DNA of 8,992 bases, from the NCBI GenBank assembly GCA_014730235.1, contig WJIO01000449.1:1-8992 (forward strand), given 5' to 3'. Below, piece after piece: positions 1-8,970 of this stretch. The stretch's first letter is position 1, and every line of letters starts with the position of its first letter. This stretch comes from Candidatus Poribacteria bacterium (GTDB lineage: Bacteria; Poribacteria; DTPJ01; WJIO01). The translations under genes were made by a program, and so were the position numbers. Under the pieces are notes generated by a model, which worked only from the letters and a program-made list of their open reading frames with translations, was not told where the DNA came from and did no database searches.

Positions 1-1762
1 CCCATACATTCGCCACTTTCATGATATTTTGGATAACCTTTTCTTTGGCGGTACGGAAAACGACTGTATTAGATCCAAAAAAGGTGGGAACTTTCATCTT
101 TTCGTGACCACCGGTCAACTCCAATAGTCGCCCCTTTTTGATAGGGAAAAATTTCTTGCCTGTCCATGGAGAAAAATCCCGAGATATTTCCCATGCTACG
201 GAAAGGCTTTCCACATTGACAAGCAATTCCTCTCCCTGCCACCAGACCAGTGCACCACGATAAAAACCATCCATTGTTTCAGGAGCTATTCCACCGTTGA
301 AGAGAGTGTGCAGTTTTTTCGATGTGGGCGACTTTATATCAGGGTTCTTCGCAAGCTCATCAGAATATGATTTGAGCATGTGAATAATGGTCTTTGAATC
401 CGCCAGATCTGCTCTTATGTCATTCATTATAGCAGGATCTACATCTCCATCCACTGGATCTGTCAAGGTTAAAGTTGTGAATTTATCATGTACTTCAACC
501 GGTGGTTCTGATATGGGAAGTATAGTCTCTACAGCGGGTAGCGGCATTTCAAGGTGTGGGAAAAGACGGCGTGCCTCAGCGTTCCAATCTTCCTCCCATA
601 GCAGAAAATATCCAAAGTGCTGATAATGGTAGATATCATGTTCCGCCTTGGGATTGTAGCGTTCCAGCAGACGTGTAGTAGCAAAAAGCACCTGCCCCAG
701 ATATAGGCCATCGGCGATTTCAACCAACTCATCAATGAGGTATGTGAGTGGTGGGAAGTTATCCAGCCCGGTGTATCGGTAATTGAGTCGAAATACTTCT
801 CTGGGAGTTCCCTTATAGATAGAAAAGGCGCAGTGGGCTGCGAAATGCCCACCATTCCGCTCGTGTCCATACTTCAGCTTTTCAGCATTTGGTGGATCTT
901 TCAATTGCCACATAAATGTCAGAATTGAGTTAGCCGCAACGTTGATGGGGGCATGTTCAATGATATTGAAATGATTAATACCGCGATATACCGGCAAATC
1001 TTCAGGGAGAGTGTTCTCCAGAGACTGCTTTCGGTCACCTTCAGCCATAGGCGTATAGCTTTTGCCTACCCAGGGAGCGACTCCGCCGATGGCTTTGCCC
1101 CATATATAGCCAAGGATATTTCCATATTCAGCTGCGACACCCTGAAGGTCACCGGTACGCAAAGGAATGGCAACACCATAGTAATGACCACCCAAGCAGT
1201 CCGGCACCAAACCAAGTTCAAATAATCTTTGCAATTTGCGATATGGAAGAGCATTGTTGTCTAACTCACCCTCAAGCTCCGTCATATATTTTTTCATCAT
1301 CTCGAGAATCGAGGCCTTGTTTAACAAATCTCCCTTGATCTGCTTGACCAGATCGTCCTCAACATCAATATTCTCAAGACATGTAAGAGTTGTAAGTTTT
1401 TCATGAGAGATAACCGGGAGCACTTCAATGGAGCGAACCCCGTTAGCTGATAAAGTTTCAGCAGGGATTTTTAGCTGAAACTCCTCATGCGGCGATGCGT
1501 TGAATCTAGTCGCTTCTTCTGTAGTATATATTGCTTTGCTGGATACAGTTTTCACTGTTATGTAAATGTCCGGCTTTTTTTCAAACAGGTCTTTGAACTT
1601 TTTTTCATCATATATTATACGAAATTTTCCATCTGCATTTGATATAACTTCCCCAAGAAGGTCATCAAAACGGTGATCTTTATCAAACGCGCTTACAATA
1701 ACCCCTGGTACTTTCTGACCGCTTTCGGCTTCCTGCACCTGACCTGAAATTTCAAAATTCAT
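1..1762 (-). CDS. Transthyretin-like domain protein with tandemly duplicated module (3' end missing)
   Basis: The frame stays open for 587 codons from the ATG at 1762 to the left edge, so the C-terminus lies outside the window. Residues 1-85 look like a transthyretin/carboxypeptidase-regulatory-like beta-sandwich (ISGQV, a PGVIVSAFDKD stretch, DGKFRI, then a KDLFEKKPDIYITV stretch); I know such domains as accessory modules. Residues 121-375 form a module with KLQRLF near 176, GHYYG near 192, PWVGK near 230 and a DELVEIADGLYLGQ block at 344-357. A second copy starts near 426 (DKFTTLT, KLHTLF, GFYRG, SPWTGK) and continues off the window. I cannot name an enzymatic activity. No signal peptide is seen. 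The 1762 start is chosen because AAGGAG lies 9 nt upstream; an in-frame ATG at 1813 would add 17 residues but has no ribosome binding site. It is the last visible gene of the minus-strand cluster. Confidence 0.85.
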   Translation of the reverse strand, partial: MNFEISGQVQEAESGQKVPGVIVSAFDKDHRFDDLLGEVISNADGKFRIIYDEKKFKDLFEKKPDIYITVKTVSSKAIYTTEEATRFNASPHEEFQLKIPAETLSANGVRSIEVLPVISHEKLTTLTCLENIDVEDDLVKQIKGDLLNKASILEMMKKYMTELEGELDNNALPYRKLQRLFELGLVPDCLGGHYYGVAIPLRTGDLQGVAAEYGNILGYIWGKAIGGVAPWVGKSYTPMAEGDRKQSLENTLPEDLPVYRGINHFNIIEHAPINVAANSILTFMWQLKDPPNAEKLKYGHERNGGHFAAHCAFSIYKGTPREVFRLNYRYTGLDNFPPLTYLIDELVEIADGLYLGQVLFATTRLLERYNPKAEHDIYHYQHFGYFLLWEEDWNAEARRLFPHLEMPLPAVETILPISEPPVEVHDKFTTLTLTDPVDGDVDPAIMNDIRADLADSKTIIHMLKSYSDELAKNPDIKSPTSKKLHTLFNGGIAPETMDGFYRGALVWWQGEELLVNVESLSVAWEISRDFSPWTGKKFFPIKKGRLLELTGGHEKMKVPTFFGSNTVVFRTAKEKVIQNIMKVANVW

Positions 1763-1770
1763 TTTATCTA

Positions 1771-1777
1771 TCTCCTT
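1771..1777 (-). promoter_or_regulatory. Ribosome binding site deciding the start at 1762
   Basis: The minus strand reads AAGGAGA here. The GGAG core is 9 nt before the ATG at 1762, and the competing in-frame ATG at 1813 has nothing comparable. This favours separate translation of the large gene rather than initiation further upstream. Confidence 0.7.
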
Positions 1778-1781
1778 ACCG

Positions 1782-1798
1782 TTTTCGCTTAGCGAAAA
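1782..1798. repeat. Inverted repeat next to the ribosome binding site
   Basis: TTTTCGCT and AGCGAAAA are perfect 8-bp arms around a single T. As RNA the innermost pair would open, giving about 7 bp with a 3-nt loop. It sits 4 nt upstream of the AAGGAGA site of the 1762 gene, so it could affect translation of that gene. No T-run follows it, so it is not a clear terminator. Confidence 0.5.
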
Positions 1799-1811
1799 TG
1801 CTCCATCTGCC

Positions 1812-1842
1812 ATACACTTATACTTTTGAGATACAAGTGTAT
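1812..1842. repeat. Inverted repeat in the 102-nt gap between the last two genes
   Basis: Perfect 8-bp arms ATACACTT (1812-1819) and AAGTGTAT (1835-1842) enclose a 15-nt AT-rich loop. It lies after the stop codon of the 115-residue gene and before the large gene. It may be an RNA processing or attenuation hairpin, or a protein-binding dyad. No U-tract follows it on the minus strand. Confidence 0.4.
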
Positions 1843-1864
1843 AGCACAAGGACACCTTGGTCTC

Positions 1865-2212
1865 TCAGAAGAAGTTTCCTATATCTGCTTTCAGCTTATC
1901 GATTCTGTCCTGAATATCCCTGGATATTTTCTTTGCTTTTTCTTCTATCTCCTTAGATACCAGGTCTTTCTCATTTATCTTTGTCAGAACTTTTTTCATG
2001 TTTTCAGCTTGAGTGACGAAATCATTATAATCTTCCTTTTCTATTTCGCCTCGATCCAAATACTTTTCGGCAGATAAAACAAAGCGATCCATAACTGCAC
2101 TCAATGAGAGGTCAACTTCTATTTTCTTAACATCAACCTCTCTGAGTGGCGGCTCTTTCAGACTTTTTTCCCAGAGTGCATCAAATTGCTCTGAAGTATT
2201 ATTTTTCATCAT
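1865..2212 (-). CDS. Small helical, coiled-coil-like protein of unknown function
   Basis: 115 residues, highly charged and rich in Lys, Glu, Asp and Ile. The sequence from about residue 62 to 112 (NDFVTQAENMKKVLTKIN, then KEIEEKAKKI and DRIDKLKADI) has the spacing of hydrophobic residues expected of a long amphipathic helix or coiled coil. Residues 1-60 also look helical. There is no signal peptide, membrane segment or catalytic motif, and I do not recognise a family. AAGGGA lies just upstream of ATG-ATG at 2212/2209; either ATG could serve. Only 20 nt separate it from the preceding gene's stop, so the two are almost certainly co-transcribed. A structural partner or chaperone for the neighbouring beta-rich proteins is a guess. 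Its frame continues past the TGA, with no further stop, into the 1762 gene. Confidence 0.75.
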   Translation of the reverse strand: MMKNNTSEQFDALWEKSLKEPPLREVDVKKIEVDLSLSAVMDRFVLSAEKYLDRGEIEKEDYNDFVTQAENMKKVLTKINEKDLVSKEIEEKAKKISRDIQDRIDKLKADIGNFF

Positions 2213-2232
2213 CGTTTTCCCTTCCAGGTGTA

Positions 2233-3189
2233 TTATCCACTGATATTGTTTACATTTATTTGCCTAAGTTCAACGTCCTTTAATACAATTCCTCTTATAT
2301 CTATTGGAACGCTTATACTCTCAATCATCGCCTGATCGATATTGGCGGATAGGGTTACATCCTGAAGGAGCATTGATCCAATGCTCATATGAGCTACTGG
2401 CTGAACCCAGAACGTAAAGCCAAAAATCCCAAAATTGACGCTGATCCCTCTCTTAGTTGCTACACCATCGATTAATATTGCATCACTTTGAATATTATCA
2501 GCAGAAGCCGCTGGAACCTGTAACTGGGATACCGCCGCACCGGGCAAGACGAGGTCAGAATTTGGTTGAAATCGCTCTATTTTTGCCTCTTTAGTAGAAG
2601 TTCTGGGAACATTAACGTTACTCAGGTTAAAATTCCCGAGTCCTAGGCCACTTAACTGGAAGCCGTCGGCAGGTACGGTAGTTTCCTTTGCATCCAGATC
2701 ATCAAAACTCCCGCCGCCTAAATCCAGATTGGTAATAGGTTTTATATTAGCATTTACATCTTCCACAGATAGGGATGGAATTGTCAGGTCTATGTTTTCC
2801 AACGAAGGAACCTGAACATTACCAACAGATATCGGAAACCACAACGAACCTAAATTCTCTGTGCCGCTGTCATCATATACCCATATGTCAATCCACCAAT
2901 CAAGTGATAATTTTAGTTCCAGGAGGATCTTCACGTCCTGAAGGAATGCGTTGCCTGAATGTACCCCAGCAGTGGTATTCTGCAATATAAGCTTGTCAAT
3001 CTTGGCTTCACCCAGTACTACCTTATCTATATCAATATCTCTGATAGTTCCTGAAGCTGCCGCCAACTGCATTATATTGATTTTTCTTGCAACCACAGCA
3101 ATAATGTCAGATAGACGCTCTCTTAAAAGACTATCCAAATCATTGGAAGCCATCACGTTTTCAGTCTTCTTAATTTTTTTGTCCGCCAT
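2233..3189 (-). CDS. Beta-rich repetitive protein of unknown function
   Basis: 318 residues. Residues 1-45 are charged and probably helical; the rest has short alternating hydrophobic strands with many Asn, Asp, Gly and Ser, suggesting a beta-solenoid or beta-sandwich. There appear to be two related halves: residues 60-140 (FLQDVKI, a DWWIDIWV patch) and 234-318 (LLQDVTL, VLKDVEL). Between them lies a Gly/Asn-rich centre containing GFQLSGLGLGNFNLSNVNVP (177-196), a motif style I have seen in unannotated bacterial proteins but cannot name. No signal peptide, membrane helix or catalytic motif is visible. The start is supported by AAGAGG about 9 nt upstream. A 118-nt gap separates it from the protease gene, so a secondary promoter is possible, though I saw no convincing one. 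A structural or binding role is inference. Confidence 0.75.
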   Translation of the reverse strand: MADKKIKKTENVMASNDLDSLLRERLSDIIAVVARKINIMQLAAASGTIRDIDIDKVVLGEAKIDKLILQNTTAGVHSGNAFLQDVKILLELKLSLDWWIDIWVYDDSGTENLGSLWFPISVGNVQVPSLENIDLTIPSLSVEDVNANIKPITNLDLGGGSFDDLDAKETTVPADGFQLSGLGLGNFNLSNVNVPRTSTKEAKIERFQPNSDLVLPGAAVSQLQVPAASADNIQSDAILIDGVATKRGISVNFGIFGFTFWVQPVAHMSIGSMLLQDVTLSANIDQAMIESISVPIDIRGIVLKDVELRQINVNNISG

Positions 3190-3307
3190 TGTTATTTTCC
3201 TCTTATGAATAAATTATATTTTCCACAGTGCTTATATATCTTTAGCTGCAATAATGAGTTGATCTTTCCTTTCGTGTTCCATAGAAATGATAACTATAAA
3301 AACAAAG

Positions 3308-5728
3308 TTATGTTAAAAAATCTAATCCGTGTATTATCCTACCCATTCGAGTGATAAATCGTATTTCTCGCATCCAATCAATATACTTAAGTGTAACTGT
3401 ATTCTCCTTTTTATCGAGGGATAATACGGCAAACCCATTGTTTCCCCGGTCCGGTCGCACACCAGTAGATTCGGGGAATCGCGGTCGAGTTTCCAAGAAT
3501 CTGGCACGTTCTCTCAAAGTTCCCTTAACATCACCCCTGTCAATTCGGGAATATGGATAGCCGCCATGTCCTATACAGCTTCCGATAAATGGCGCGTCTT
3601 CTGCGCGTCGATAAAGTGCACAGTAATGCTCATTTCCCCAGAACCAGAGATCGATTAATCCGTCGCGCGCAAAACGGTCCATATCTCTGATCAACAAATC
3701 ACTGTTTTCACCAGATTTGTAGCTATAAGGTTCGTTGGCGCTCAATAGGATGTTGATCATGCCATTAGTGCGCTTATACTCAAGCTGTGCCGCCAGCCAC
3801 TCGACTAATTTATTTTCACAATGTCTGCCATCTGTATGATAGGCGGTATCAATACCGATAATCTGGAATTGGTCAGATCGGATGCAGAAATAGCTTCCCT
3901 CTTGCTCGTGCAATTGAGATTTATTTCTCCGATCATCAATGCATTGAAAGTATGGAAATCCTCCTGAAAGCATCTCATGATTGGCGTTAAGAGCAAATAG
4001 ACGCGCCTTTTGGATCAATCTCTCCAGTGGCTTTGTGAAGTTATTCTGAAATTCCGTATGTGTCCCGGCATAATAGACATCTCCTAAGTGAATGGCGTAA
4101 TCAAGAGCTGGTTCCCAATTCGCCATGTGCAGCGCAATATAAAGTGAATGATAGAGACCTGTTCCAAAATCGCTAAACAAGCCAATGTTGATCTTACCAT
4201 CGTTGGCAACAGGATCTGCCATAGTATAAACAAATCGGCTGGAATAATCCTCTGCCCATCGAAATGGTGCCTTATTGAATTTCCCAATTTTCTCAGCGAT
4301 AAATTTCCCAGCGGCATGTTTGATCCATCCAGCAGCATCTCTTTTCTCCTCATACTTACTCAACGCCGGATCGATGGGAATTTTATCAGTCATGTCTGAA
4401 AAATTGAAATTGGATGGTAATTTTACCTGACCTTTACCCCAATCTGATGGCGGCCATGCTGCCTCAAGTTCGGCACTAAAGGCAGATTCCATCACTGCTT
4501 CATTGACAATTCCATCTTTAGAATTATCAGCGATCCATTTTAATCGCTCAAGAGCCCCGATTAAATCACCAGCAGTAAGCTCGCTATCCCAGATTCCCTG
4601 GAAATATGCAAGTGTGAGATCAGGATCATTGCGAAGTGACTCCCGGATAAATTCGACTGATTCAATTGACAGCTCCTCAAGCTTTTCCGTAGTCTGAACG
4701 GAGGTTTCTGTCCTAAAGTAAACTTTTGGTGTTCTTATCGCTTTTATCGCCTTATCTATTTGATCTGATAGTATCCAGATGGGCACTGAATAATTTGCTT
4801 CGAGATATGATCCTGCATAGTGAAGTCCAATCACCTTTCCTGAATCCAGATCAATAACAGGGCTTCCGGAACTGCCACCAAGTGAAGTGTAATCTGAGAC
4901 TAGCTCATTCGCCCTGGGAGATGAATCATCGGCAAGTGGATCATACTGGATCTGTCTTAGACGTCCTGGGGCCATCCGTTTTACGCCAAATATGCCATCG
5001 AAAATCCTGGCCTGCAGCTTTGCTGGTAATCTGGAATCAAAAGCGGGATATCCGATAGTGCAGACTAGAGTACCTTGAGAACCATCCACCAATATCTCAG
5101 GCATTTCCCGGACATATTCAAGCGGCTCTGGTAAGCTATGTCCATTAGCTGGCTTAACTTCCAATAGAGCAAAATCAAGAGAAGTGCCAATCTTTATCAC
5201 TCTAATAATGCTGTGTTCCAAATCTGGATTGCGACCATGCTCTTCAGCAAAGTCAATTACGGGTTTAAATCCAGAACGGATACTCCCATCTGCAGAGGAA
5301 AACACCTCGGTAACATGGTGATTAGTAAGTAATATGTTTGGGGCAACCATGAAACCAGTACCAATATGATGTTCAGTGTTTCTAAGAAAGCCACCATAAT
5401 CCTCAAAACGCAGATCAATCCTTCCGATCGACGGGATCGACGGGATAATCTTTTCACGTCTTGATGTTAAACGCTTGTTCCATTCTAAACTTTTGGGTTC
5501 CTCAAATTCTCCGTTGACGATAAATAAAACTGGACGACCACGGCTGAGTACAATAGCCTCAAGTTCCTTAACATGCTTTTTTCCGACCTCTTCTGGCTTA
5601 TCTCGCACCTGACTCAGGACCTTATTCTCCAATTTATCTTTGTCAACATGTGGAGCCAGAATCTCCTGATTCCAACTCATTAGTTGGTGGAGATATGAAA
5701 GTGCTTTGCTTTCTAATGAATGACTCAT
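3308..5728 (-). CDS. Trypsin/V8-like serine protease fused to purple-acid-phosphatase-like metallophosphoesterase
   Basis: 806 residues in two enzymatic domains. Residues 1-95 are a helical lead. Residues about 100-335 are a chymotrypsin-fold protease: GTGFMVAP then TNHHV gives His138, SLDFALLEV gives Asp185, GGSSGSPV gives Ser287, so the triad looks complete. Residues 345-480 are a helical linker of unknown type. Residues about 500-806 match the calcineurin/purple acid phosphatase superfamily: SDFGTG (Asp520), HLGDVYY (Asp550, Tyr553), NANHE (Asn583, His584), then CIGHGG downstream. The two later metal motifs are altered: LLSANEP replaces the usual V-x-x-H, and GNEH replaces GHEH. The protease is therefore probably active, while the phosphoesterase may be impaired or changed. 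There is no signal peptide, so cytoplasmic action or non-classical export is likely. It starts 17 nt after the propeller gene's stop, with AAAGGTAGG upstream, which supports operon membership. Confidence 0.9.
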   Translation of the reverse strand: MSHSLESKALSYLHQLMSWNQEILAPHVDKDKLENKVLSQVRDKPEEVGKKHVKELEAIVLSRGRPVLFIVNGEFEEPKSLEWNKRLTSRREKIIPSIPSIGRIDLRFEDYGGFLRNTEHHIGTGFMVAPNILLTNHHVTEVFSSADGSIRSGFKPVIDFAEEHGRNPDLEHSIIRVIKIGTSLDFALLEVKPANGHSLPEPLEYVREMPEILVDGSQGTLVCTIGYPAFDSRLPAKLQARIFDGIFGVKRMAPGRLRQIQYDPLADDSSPRANELVSDYTSLGGSSGSPVIDLDSGKVIGLHYAGSYLEANYSVPIWILSDQIDKAIKAIRTPKVYFRTETSVQTTEKLEELSIESVEFIRESLRNDPDLTLAYFQGIWDSELTAGDLIGALERLKWIADNSKDGIVNEAVMESAFSAELEAAWPPSDWGKGQVKLPSNFNFSDMTDKIPIDPALSKYEEKRDAAGWIKHAAGKFIAEKIGKFNKAPFRWAEDYSSRFVYTMADPVANDGKINIGLFSDFGTGLYHSLYIALHMANWEPALDYAIHLGDVYYAGTHTEFQNNFTKPLERLIQKARLFALNANHEMLSGGFPYFQCIDDRRNKSQLHEQEGSYFCIRSDQFQIIGIDTAYHTDGRHCENKLVEWLAAQLEYKRTNGMINILLSANEPYSYKSGENSDLLIRDMDRFARDGLIDLWFWGNEHYCALYRRAEDAPFIGSCIGHGGYPYSRIDRGDVKGTLRERARFLETRPRFPESTGVRPDRGNNGFAVLSLDKKENTVTLKYIDWMREIRFITRMGRIIHGLDFLT
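5426..5443. repeat. 9-bp tandem duplication inside the protease gene
   Basis: GATCGACGG occurs twice in a row. On the coding strand it duplicates the tripeptide Pro-Ser-Ile (SIPSIPSIG, residues 97-102) just before the protease domain. It keeps the frame and probably only changes linker length. Confidence 0.8.
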
Positions 5729-5745
5729 GATCTACCTACCTTTAA

Positions 5746-6987
5746 TTACTCGCGAGATCTAGTCTCACTGTGATGAAAACCAAGATGAAATCCCTGTCTT
5801 CCAAGCCTATATTGGGGAGTTTTAGTGTATTTATCCCTTCGAAATGGTAATAACTCGCTGTAGAGTTTTTTGAACGTCCAACGGTCATAAACCGAAATAA
5901 CGTTATAGCCTCTGTTTGCAGCAAAGATATAGTTTCCCTGCGGTGAAACCCGCGCAGCATAGATACCATCCAGAATACGCCATCCTGTTACCTGAAGTGT
6001 TTGTAAAAGCAGGTGGGTATTAATTAATACAGGACGTCTGCTCATCGAACCCAATAAATTTTTAAATCTCTGACGCCATAGACGTGCTCGTTTCCAATAA
6101 GACGGTTTGCAATTGAGCACTCTACTTTCGTCAAAACCATCAAGATTAATCTCTACAACTGTATGACTTCCACCACTGGCCACAAAGAGGTAGTTGTCAT
6201 CTGTAACTCCCACATCTGAATTCAGGTGAATTGGGAATTCTGACCCACAACTCCAAACGCGTATTATCTTAGCAGTAGGGAGATCGACCTCAAATATATA
6301 CTCACGCGTATATGCCGGTGACCAATCTACGTAATCTTCTTGCTCTGTTGCAAACGAGTATGTCAAAGCATAGCCCACTGGTTTGTTTGGATGCACGCAA
6401 CAATGCCAAACAGTTCCGGGCAAATTAATCACACTGGATCGCTTTTCTGGGTCTGGCTCTTTTAGATCAAAGACTGCAATCTGACGCGCGTCCGTATCCT
6501 CAGGCCCTAGGTCCCCTATAAGTATATATCTGCGGTTGGGATCCCAACGGATTTCGTGAGCGTTGAAAAGCCCATGCGGTCCAAGCTTTTCAGGCTTTTT
6601 CAATTTATCTACATGAAAACGATATAGGTTATCACCTATCGCCCCTATAAAAGTTTTATTATCCGGATACCAGAGATGATGTGTATTTGCGCGCAACCGG
6701 TAATCGCATTTCTCAAAATATTGTGTTGCCTGCCTCGCTATTATCTTCATATCCTGAGAATTTGATATATCAAGGAGCACTATTTGTTGACTGAAGTTAC
6801 CAAGTAGAGCCAATTCGCCATTGGGTGATAACGAAACGTTATGGGCACCGCTTATACCATGATAGTGCTGTATATAGTATTTTTGCTCCGGCCAGTCAAA
6901 TCGAATAATTCCTGCACTACCTATCAATCCATCAAGATGCGGACCATCCAACGCCATATAAACACTAAATCGTTCACTGCTTTCCAT
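5746..6987 (-). CDS. YVTN/lactonase-type beta-propeller protein
   Basis: 413 residues with repeated propeller-blade signatures: NVSLSPNGELALLGN (50-64), NKTFIGAIGDNLYRF (110-124), RYILIGDL (153-160), YLFVASGGSHTVVEINL (266-282) and NYIFAANRGYNVISVYD (352-368). Six or so blades can be traced. Blade openings often carry histidine (GAHN 49, THHL 103/104, NAHE 144, VWHC 195, PIHL 254), which could face the central channel. A basic insert lies at about 295-320. No signal peptide or membrane segment is present. Such folds include lactonases, metal-binding oxidases and protein-binding scaffolds; I cannot choose among them. The start at 6987 is preferred over the in-frame ATG at 7029 because AAGGGGG lies 7 nt upstream of it. 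It is the first gene of the minus-strand cluster, with a sigma-54 promoter upstream and the protease gene 17 nt downstream. Confidence 0.85.
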   Translation of the reverse strand: MESSERFSVYMALDGPHLDGLIGSAGIIRFDWPEQKYYIQHYHGISGAHNVSLSPNGELALLGNFSQQIVLLDISNSQDMKIIARQATQYFEKCDYRLRANTHHLWYPDNKTFIGAIGDNLYRFHVDKLKKPEKLGPHGLFNAHEIRWDPNRRYILIGDLGPEDTDARQIAVFDLKEPDPEKRSSVINLPGTVWHCCVHPNKPVGYALTYSFATEQEDYVDWSPAYTREYIFEVDLPTAKIIRVWSCGSEFPIHLNSDVGVTDDNYLFVASGGSHTVVEINLDGFDESRVLNCKPSYWKRARLWRQRFKNLLGSMSRRPVLINTHLLLQTLQVTGWRILDGIYAARVSPQGNYIFAANRGYNVISVYDRWTFKKLYSELLPFRRDKYTKTPQYRLGRQGFHLGFHHSETRSRE

Positions 6988-6994
6988 TTTGTTT

Positions 6995-7001
6995 CCCCCT
7001 T
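6995..7001 (-). promoter_or_regulatory. Ribosome binding site deciding the start at 6987
   Basis: The minus strand reads AAGGGGG with 7 nt to the ATG at 6987. The longer alternative start at 7029 lacks a comparable site, so the protein is taken as 413 rather than 427 residues. Confidence 0.65.
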
Positions 7002-7085
7002 GAACGTGTTGCCGACTCCAAAACTTCAATCTCGCAGCAAAAAGAATCGCAATATAAATTGTCTTCTATGATAACATGAATTTAT

Positions 7086-8094: not shown

Positions 8095-8970
8095 ATGCGT
8101 ATATGGCTATATATCCTATATATCTTGCTGCTAAATTTACTCCTGAGCGTTACTCAAGCACAGGAAGCAGTCAGCATCGGCGGAACTTTGTTTATGCTTG
8201 ACGGTAAAACTCCCCATGTGTTTGTGCCAGTCCAAGCAATGAGCGATGGCGAAGTGAAGGTCACTACCTTGAGCGGTGGCGATGGGAAGTATGAATTCAA
8301 CAACATCAAGCCGGGAGTTTACCACCTGAGATGTCAGACTTTGAAGGGATATGTATATTACAGCACCCGCAATAAAAAGGCAGAGACGGATGCCCCCGGA
8401 AAGGCTGTACGCGCTGCTCCCGGAGATTCCATTAGGGACATTAATTTCTATTTTCCACCGTTCAAGAAGGGTTCATGGAAAAACTATGATACCTTAGATG
8501 GATTGGCATACAATATTATTAGCGATGTTCATCGCGATCTGGAAGGGATAATGTGGTTTGCCACTTTTGGAAGCGGTATTTCCCGATATGATGGTAATAA
8601 ATTTACCAATCTCACTACTAAAGATGGCCTTGCCCATAACTATGTTTTTTCCATTCATAGCGGTCTGGATGGTACTATATGGTTTGGCACTGGAAGCGGC
8701 GTTTCTAAATATGATGGAGATGAATTCAGCACTTTTGCTGCGGAAAGCGAATTATCAGGTAGTCCCGTTCGCGATATATACCGTAACTCAAACGGCGCGA
8801 TGTGGTTTGCCACACTTGGAAATGGTGTATTTCGCTATGATGGAAACCATCTTGCCAATTTAAAAGTAGAAGACGGGCTTGCCAAGCATAAAAATATTGT
8901 TCCCTTTGAAGTCCTAAGAAAATACGGGAGGAATAATACGGGGTTGGCAAAAAGAAGACGCATCCATTAG
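8095..8970 (+). CDS. Secreted regulator-propeller sensor protein, truncated
   Basis: 291 residues. Residues 1-22 are a signal peptide with a long hydrophobic core, likely cut after TQA. Residues 27-88 resemble a carboxypeptidase-regulatory-like domain (GGTLFMLDGKTP, GDGKYEFNNIKPGVY). Residues 122-130 (PFKKGSWKN) lead into two-component-regulator propeller repeats: DGLAYN...MWFATFGSGISRYDG (135-167), DGLAHN...IWFGTGSGVSKYDG (177-208) and the PVRDIYR...MWFATLGNGVFRYDG unit (224-250). A fourth starts with DGLA at 260 and stops matching; the last 28 residues are basic and unrelated. Full members usually carry many more repeats and a membrane-linked signalling output, so this looks 3'-truncated. 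GGAGA sits 6 nt before the ATG. It is transcribed divergently from the minus-strand cluster, beyond the remnants. Confidence 0.75.
   Translation: MRIWLYILYILLLNLLLSVTQAQEAVSIGGTLFMLDGKTPHVFVPVQAMSDGEVKVTTLSGGDGKYEFNNIKPGVYHLRCQTLKGYVYYSTRNKKAETDAPGKAVRAAPGDSIRDINFYFPPFKKGSWKNYDTLDGLAYNIISDVHRDLEGIMWFATFGSGISRYDGNKFTNLTTKDGLAHNYVFSIHSGLDGTIWFGTGSGVSKYDGDEFSTFAAESELSGSPVRDIYRNSNGAMWFATLGNGVFRYDGNHLANLKVEDGLAKHKNIVPFEVLRKYGRNNTGLAKRRRIH

What the first reader, a model, noticed from the sequence alone, without database searches (positions are those of the whole stretch)
3308..5728. Phosphoesterase half has lost two second-metal histidines while keeping first-metal ligands
Seen: LLSANEP where purple-acid-phosphatase-like enzymes have V-x-x-H, and GNEH where they have GHxH. 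Kept: Asp520, Asp550, Tyr553, Asn583 and His701. In purple acid phosphatases the V-x-x-H histidine and the first His of GHxH both bind the second metal (M2), while the last His and the Tyr bind M1. Both losses hitting one metal site suggests selective conversion to a mononuclear or non-catalytic domain, perhaps a sensor or regulator of the attached protease, rather than random decay.
Basis: partly seen in the sequence, partly recalled or inferred. Interest (0 to 1): 0.72.

Follow-up and report, generated by a model that had tools for sequence, protein, structure and literature searches.

The report
Protease-linked phosphoesterase with rebuilt metal site
A bacterial protein joins an apparently intact protein-cutting domain to a phosphate-cutting-type domain whose second metal site has lost both of its histidines; nine relatives share this change, so it is an old, maintained redesign rather than decay, although what the altered domain now does is untested.

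Summary
Observation confirmed. In the 806-aa window protein (trypsin-like protease plus purple-acid-phosphatase-type metallophosphoesterase, MPE) the V-x-x-H histidine is Ala664 (followed by Asn665) and the first His of GHxH is Asn699. Asp520, Asp550, Tyr553, Asn583, His584 and His701 are intact. I found nine further proteins (Acidobacteria, one Myxococcales) with the same changes: position 664 is A/S in 10/10, 699 is N in 10/10, 665 is N/D in 10/10, while 85/85 other relatives keep His at 664 and 699. With the trait columns masked, the ten form one clade (support 100/100), and close pairs show purifying selection (dN/dS about 0.1-0.17). So this is a single, maintained remodelling, not decay or a sequencing error. 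One correction: Asn583 is an M2 ligand in purple acid phosphatases, so M2 loses two of four ligands. The invariant Asn replacement argues for a rebuilt site. A protease is fused or lies in a nearby gene in several members, and canonical relatives sit beside trypsin, caspase or TIR genes, suggesting a defence/conflict module. Regulation of the protease, metal content and loss of hydrolysis are inferred, not shown. New variant of a known kind.

The parts
3308..5728 (-). 806-aa gene: trypsin-like protease, helical linker, altered metallophosphoesterase
   Evidence: ORF and Pfam; sole copy in the genome
4823..5362 (-). trypsin-like protease domain, residues 123-302; apparent triad His138 (5317-5315), Asp185 (5176-5174), Ser287 (4870-4868)
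   Evidence: PF13365 E 1e-12; motifs TNHHV, LDFALL, GSSGSP read by eye (motif positions)
4364..4675 (-). helical linker, about residues 352-455, shared with most altered-clade members
   Evidence: alignments A2 and A5; helices predicted; tblastn matches in L115, L019, L020
3311..4210 (-). metallophosphoesterase domain of purple-acid-phosphatase fold, residues 507-806
   Evidence: AlphaFold pLDDT 88, pTM 0.89; best match human purple acid phosphatase 2bq8 Z 27.4, rmsd 2.8 over 270 residues
3734..3739 (-). Ala664-Asn665 in place of the V-x-x-H metal-2 histidine and its neighbour
   Evidence: 10/10 family A or S at 664, N or D at 665; 85/85 others His at 664
3632..3634 (-). Asn699 in place of the first His of GHxH (metal 2)
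   Evidence: 10/10 family Asn, 85/85 others His
3626..3628 (-). His701, kept metal-1 ligand
   Evidence: 95/95
4169..4171 (-). Asp520, kept metal-1 ligand
   Evidence: 95/95
4079..4081 (-). Asp550, kept bridging ligand
   Evidence: 95/95
4070..4072 (-). Tyr553, kept metal-1 ligand (PAP-type GDxxY)
   Evidence: 10/10 family; 75/85 others Tyr, 10/85 Phe
3977..3982 (-). Asn583 (metal-2 ligand in PAPs) and His584 (catalytic His of GNH), both kept
   Evidence: 95/95 each

Best explanation
[quoted passage not shown] Shown by computation: the substitutions, their strict conservation, a single clade, purifying selection in close pairs, the predicted fold, and a recurring protease association. Inferred: the domain still binds one metal ion at M1 (Asp520, Asp550, Tyr553, His701), cannot run normal two-metal phosphoester hydrolysis, and now acts as a ligand-binding (phosphate- or nucleotide-like) regulatory domain for the linked protease in a modular defence/conflict system.
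For: Ten family proteins share the changes and 85/85 other relatives lack them (members found). One clade at 100/100 with trait columns masked and long-branched rows L053, L060 and L096 left out. dN/dS about 0.11 for the pairs L018/L020 and L116/L117, 0.17 for L017/L018. Six metal or catalytic residues invariant 10/10. PAP fold. Protease link: fused in the window, and by eye in L019 and L115 (WHVL, GDCA, GGDSG motifs, no Pfam hit); a gene with a C-terminal Endonuclease_NS domain and, by eye, a similar protease half lies two genes upstream in L018 and L020 (Pfam run on L018 only); a trypsin-endonuclease gene lies about 3.5 kb away in L022. Canonical relatives: trypsin directly downstream in L032, L042, L044, L048, L087, followed by caspase in L032, L048, L087; TIR genes near five plasmid relatives, with caspase genes in four; the L022 contig also carries an nSTAND1-EAD1 protein.
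Against: No metal content, activity or binding was measured. Retention of every M1 residue plus Asn583 and His584 fits a surviving catalytic function as well as a sensor. No protease was identified next to L017, L021, L116 and L117 (contigs short for some). Of five window ORFs scanned with Pfam, none is an endonuclease, caspase or NTPase.
Confidence: 0.45

Rival explanations
1. The domain is still an enzyme: the second site is re-liganded with oxygen donors (Asp550, Asn583, Asn699, perhaps Asn/Asp665) and binds a harder ion such as Mg, Ca or Mn, or M1 alone supports a different reaction.
For: Replacements are not free to vary: Asn 10/10 at 699, Asn/Asp 10/10 at 665, and the kept metal and catalytic residues invariant. 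MslH, a calcineurin-fold epimerase, works with one Ca(II) (PMC10406935), so new chemistry on this fold is precedented.
Against: MslH and Dbr1 keep the beta (M2) pocket with Asn and His ligands, the pocket altered here. No coordinates were available to check ligand geometry.
Confidence: 0.33
2. A pure scaffold or structural domain with no ligand or metal, like VPS29-type non-catalytic MPE folds.
For: Loss of two metal ligands; GAP50 (3tgh), titled as an anchor protein, and VPS29 (2a22) are among the structural matches.
Against: Six metal or catalytic residues invariant across ten divergent members, which a bare scaffold would not need.
Confidence: 0.15
3. Lineage-specific decay or sequencing error in this assembly.
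For: The window gene comes from a fragmented draft genome (451 contigs).
Against: Same substitutions in nine other proteins from other genomes, single clade, purifying selection in close pairs.
Confidence: 0.02

Closest known systems
Mammalian purple acid phosphatase (TRAP, PDB 2bq8, 1ute)
   Same: Fold (Z 27, rmsd 2.8 over about 270 residues); M1 residues, bridging Asp, Asn and catalytic His conserved
   Different: Both M2 histidines replaced; [quoted passage not shown]
Bacterial MPEs beside TIR, caspase or trypsin genes (e.g. L011, L048, L087)
   Same: Sequence relatives outside the clade; protease partners recur
   Different: Keep SHHQ and GHEH, so presumably two-metal enzymes
NucA-trypsin conflict systems (System 3 of Kaur et al. 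2020, PMC7159879)
   Same: The window protease half matches proteins annotated as DNA/RNA non-specific endonucleases; the altered MPE sits near a trypsin-endonuclease gene in L022 and two genes from an Endonuclease_NS gene in L018
   Different: The window protein carries an altered MPE, and no endonuclease was found among the window ORFs scanned with Pfam
Single-metal MPE-fold enzymes MslH and Dbr1
   Same: Structures with one metal in an MPE fold (PMC10406935, PMC4176325)
   Different: They keep the M2 (beta) pocket and lack a metal at M1; here the M2 pocket is the one altered

Membership tests
Calcineurin-like metallophosphoesterase, purple-acid-phosphatase type | PAP-like fold | tested here: met
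   AlphaFold model pLDDT 88; PAPs fill ranks 1-8 by Z
Calcineurin-like metallophosphoesterase, purple-acid-phosphatase type | M1 ligands Asp, bridging Asp, Tyr, last His | tested here: met
   Asp520, Asp550, Tyr553, His701
Calcineurin-like metallophosphoesterase, purple-acid-phosphatase type | M2 histidines (V-x-x-H and first His of GHxH) | tested here: not met
   Ala664 and Asn699; lost in 10/10 of the family, kept in 85/85 relatives
Calcineurin-like metallophosphoesterase, purple-acid-phosphatase type | phosphoesterase activity with two metals | not testable with these tools
   needs protein
NucA-trypsin conflict system | trypsin-like peptidase of that kind | tested here: met
   tblastn to plasmid proteins annotated as DNA/RNA non-specific endonucleases, matching the protease half, E down to 1e-29
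NucA-trypsin conflict system | NucA-type endonuclease in the locus | tested here: inconclusive
   Pfam scan of five of the window's ORFs found none, but the window spans only 9 kb; Endonuclease_NS is present in the loci L022 and L018
Single-metal MPE like MslH or Dbr1 | intact beta (M2) pocket | tested here: not met
   both M2 histidines replaced

The most novel reading that the evidence does not exclude
A purple-acid-phosphatase-fold family whose M2 site has been rebuilt with Asn/Asp donors while M1 is kept, working as a one-metal or hard-metal ligand-gated switch (or with a new chemistry) that controls a fused protease in bacterial defence.
Probability: 0.3. Interest if true: 0.75.

Novelty: new variant of a known kind. 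Interest (0 to 1): 0.5.

Why it matters
Calcineurin-type phosphoesterase domains are predicted nucleotide phosphodiesterase effectors in bacterial conflict systems (PMC7159879, PMC8195603). A conserved subfamily with the M2 histidines exchanged for Asn and Ala/Ser, with proteases fused or nearby in several members, offers a clean natural comparison (GHxH versus GNxH relatives) for how a two-metal hydrolase becomes something else, and whether such domains gate proteolytic defence enzymes.

Tried and rejected
Relatives by exact peptides of the window protein in genome contigs: none. Window's own phylum: no other member among 84 genomes by profile nor at E 1e-5 by protein. Phage records: no match. 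Viral contigs: six then four relatives (three of them the same loci); none of the six aligned has the GNxH change, and L097 reads HN at 664-665 but keeps His699. Single-sequence search against the PDB gave only weak hits to influenza hemagglutinin chains, taken as chance; the profile gave purple acid phosphatases. PADLOC: matches to the protease half only, best a family named nacht, E 7e-10. Neighbouring window genes (propeller, 318 aa, 115 aa) have no tblastn match in the other fetched loci. The linker folded alone had low confidence (pLDDT 73), so I did not search its fold. GAP50: no paper on its structure was found in the library searched, only papers that mention it. Alternative M2 histidine two residues on (position 666) exists in six family members but is Glu or Gln in the other four including the window, so it is not a general replacement.

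Full report
What is there. On the minus strand, 5728..3308 encodes 806 residues without a stop: a trypsin-like protease domain (PF13365, 123-302) and a metallophosphoesterase (PF00149, 514-702). The apparent protease triad is intact by motif: His138, Asp185, Ser287. The genome holds no second copy and no other of 84 same-phylum genomes has one by profile, so the gene is rare there; horizontal arrival is a likely but untested reason.

The observation. LLSANEP and GNEH are as reported (codons read). A profile of 64 relatives aligned to human purple acid phosphatase (E 1e-14) places residue 664 at the V-x-x-H ligand and 699/701 at the GHxH pair. A profile of the altered family alone shifts the first stretch by one residue, opposite 665; 664 is the better choice because 85/85 unaltered relatives have His there, whereas 665 is His in 79 and Gln, Tyr or Asn in six. 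In purple acid phosphatases (established knowledge) M1 is bound by Asp, bridging Asp, Tyr and the last His, and M2 by the bridging Asp, the Asn of GNH, and the two histidines lost here.

It is a family trait. A genome scan returned 80 relatives; six carry GNxH, and whole-genome searches added three more. Across ten members: 664 A9/S1, 665 N4/D6, 699 N10, with Asp520, Asp550, Tyr553, Asn583, His584 and His701 all 10/10. Across 85 others: His at 664 and 699 in all. The tree built with the trait columns masked, and with long-branched rows L053, L060 and L096 left out, puts the ten in one clade at 100/100. An earlier quick tree with all rows agrees. Close pairs show dN/dS of about 0.11 (L018/L020, L116/L117) to 0.17 (L017/L018); in the more distant pairs synonymous sites near saturation, and I do not lean on them. 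Family-specific changes also occur outside the metal site, for example Ser (9) or Thr (1) at 717 where 55/57 others have Arg, and Phe (9) or Leu (1) at 621 where 55/57 have Trp.

Distribution. In 396 genomes drawn from the phylum of G100 two have a member, and in 377 from the phylum of G102 one.

Fold. AlphaFold of residues 352-806 (pLDDT 88, pTM 0.89) matches mammalian purple acid phosphatases best (Z 27.4, rmsd 2.8; Foldseek agrees). Model residue 313 (Ala664) follows a strand at 307-312 and model residue 348 (Asn699) follows a strand at 343-346, as expected for ligand positions. I could not measure distances.

Neighbourhood. In L019 and L115 the altered MPE is fused to an N-terminal region that I read as a trypsin-like protease by its motifs; Pfam finds nothing there at the cut-off used, and the window's protease does not match it by tblastn, which suggests separate fusions. 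In L018 the order is a gene with a C-terminal Endonuclease_NS domain and a similar N-terminal half, an animal-type haem peroxidase, then the altered MPE; L020 has the same three-gene order by sequence similarity, preceded by a GMC oxidoreductase. In L117 the order is GMC oxidoreductase, a patatin/DUF3376 protein, then the altered MPE. In L022 the altered MPE is the C-terminal half of a ceramidase-domain protein, near a GDSL-MPE protein, a trypsin-endonuclease gene about 3.5 kb on, and an nSTAND1-EAD1 protein. Unaltered relatives: an ORF scan shows a trypsin gene directly downstream in L032, L042, L044, L048 and L087, with a caspase gene after it in L032, L048 and L087; tblastn places a trypsin shortly downstream also in L026, L043, L051 and L084; L035 has trypsin and MPE in one protein. 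Plasmid relatives L011, L012, L013 and L015 have TIR and caspase genes; L014 has a TIR-domain gene and CHAT-domain genes.

Mechanism and rivals. Best supported: a remodelled, still metal-competent pocket; most likely one metal at M1 and no ordinary phosphoesterase activity, used as a ligand-binding regulator of a protease. The main rival is a re-liganded or one-metal enzyme, favoured by the strict Asn at 699 and Asn/Asp at 665. Two MPE-fold enzymes with one metal in their structures, MslH and Dbr1, keep the pocket that is altered here. The link to defence rests on neighbours and on published predictions for such gene sets, not on any test.

Noticed in passing
window 5746-7029 (-): Beta-propeller protein (Lactonase-like, PF10282 just over cut-off) directly upstream of the protease-MPE gene, same strand, 17-base gap; possible operon.
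   Followed up: partly
window 2233-3189 and 1865-2212 (-): 318-aa and 115-aa proteins downstream on the same strand with no Pfam family over cut-off and no match in the other fetched loci.
   Followed up: partly
L022:6145-8640 and 1687-5223: One Myxococcales contig holds a GDSL-lipase-MPE protein reading WAHEH in place of WGHEH and a ceramidase-altered-MPE protein.
   Followed up: partly
L097 (viral contig): MPE reading THNQ: first His kept, second His replaced by Asn, with GHEH intact.
   Followed up: no
L018, L020, L117 neighbourhoods: Altered MPE in gene sets with GMC oxidoreductase (L020, L117), haem peroxidase (L018; L020 by sequence similarity) or patatin (L117): an unusual oxidant/lipase set.
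   Followed up: partly
window 8095-8970 (+): 291-aa protein with a two-component-regulator propeller repeat (PF07494) near the end of the window, possibly truncated.
   Followed up: no
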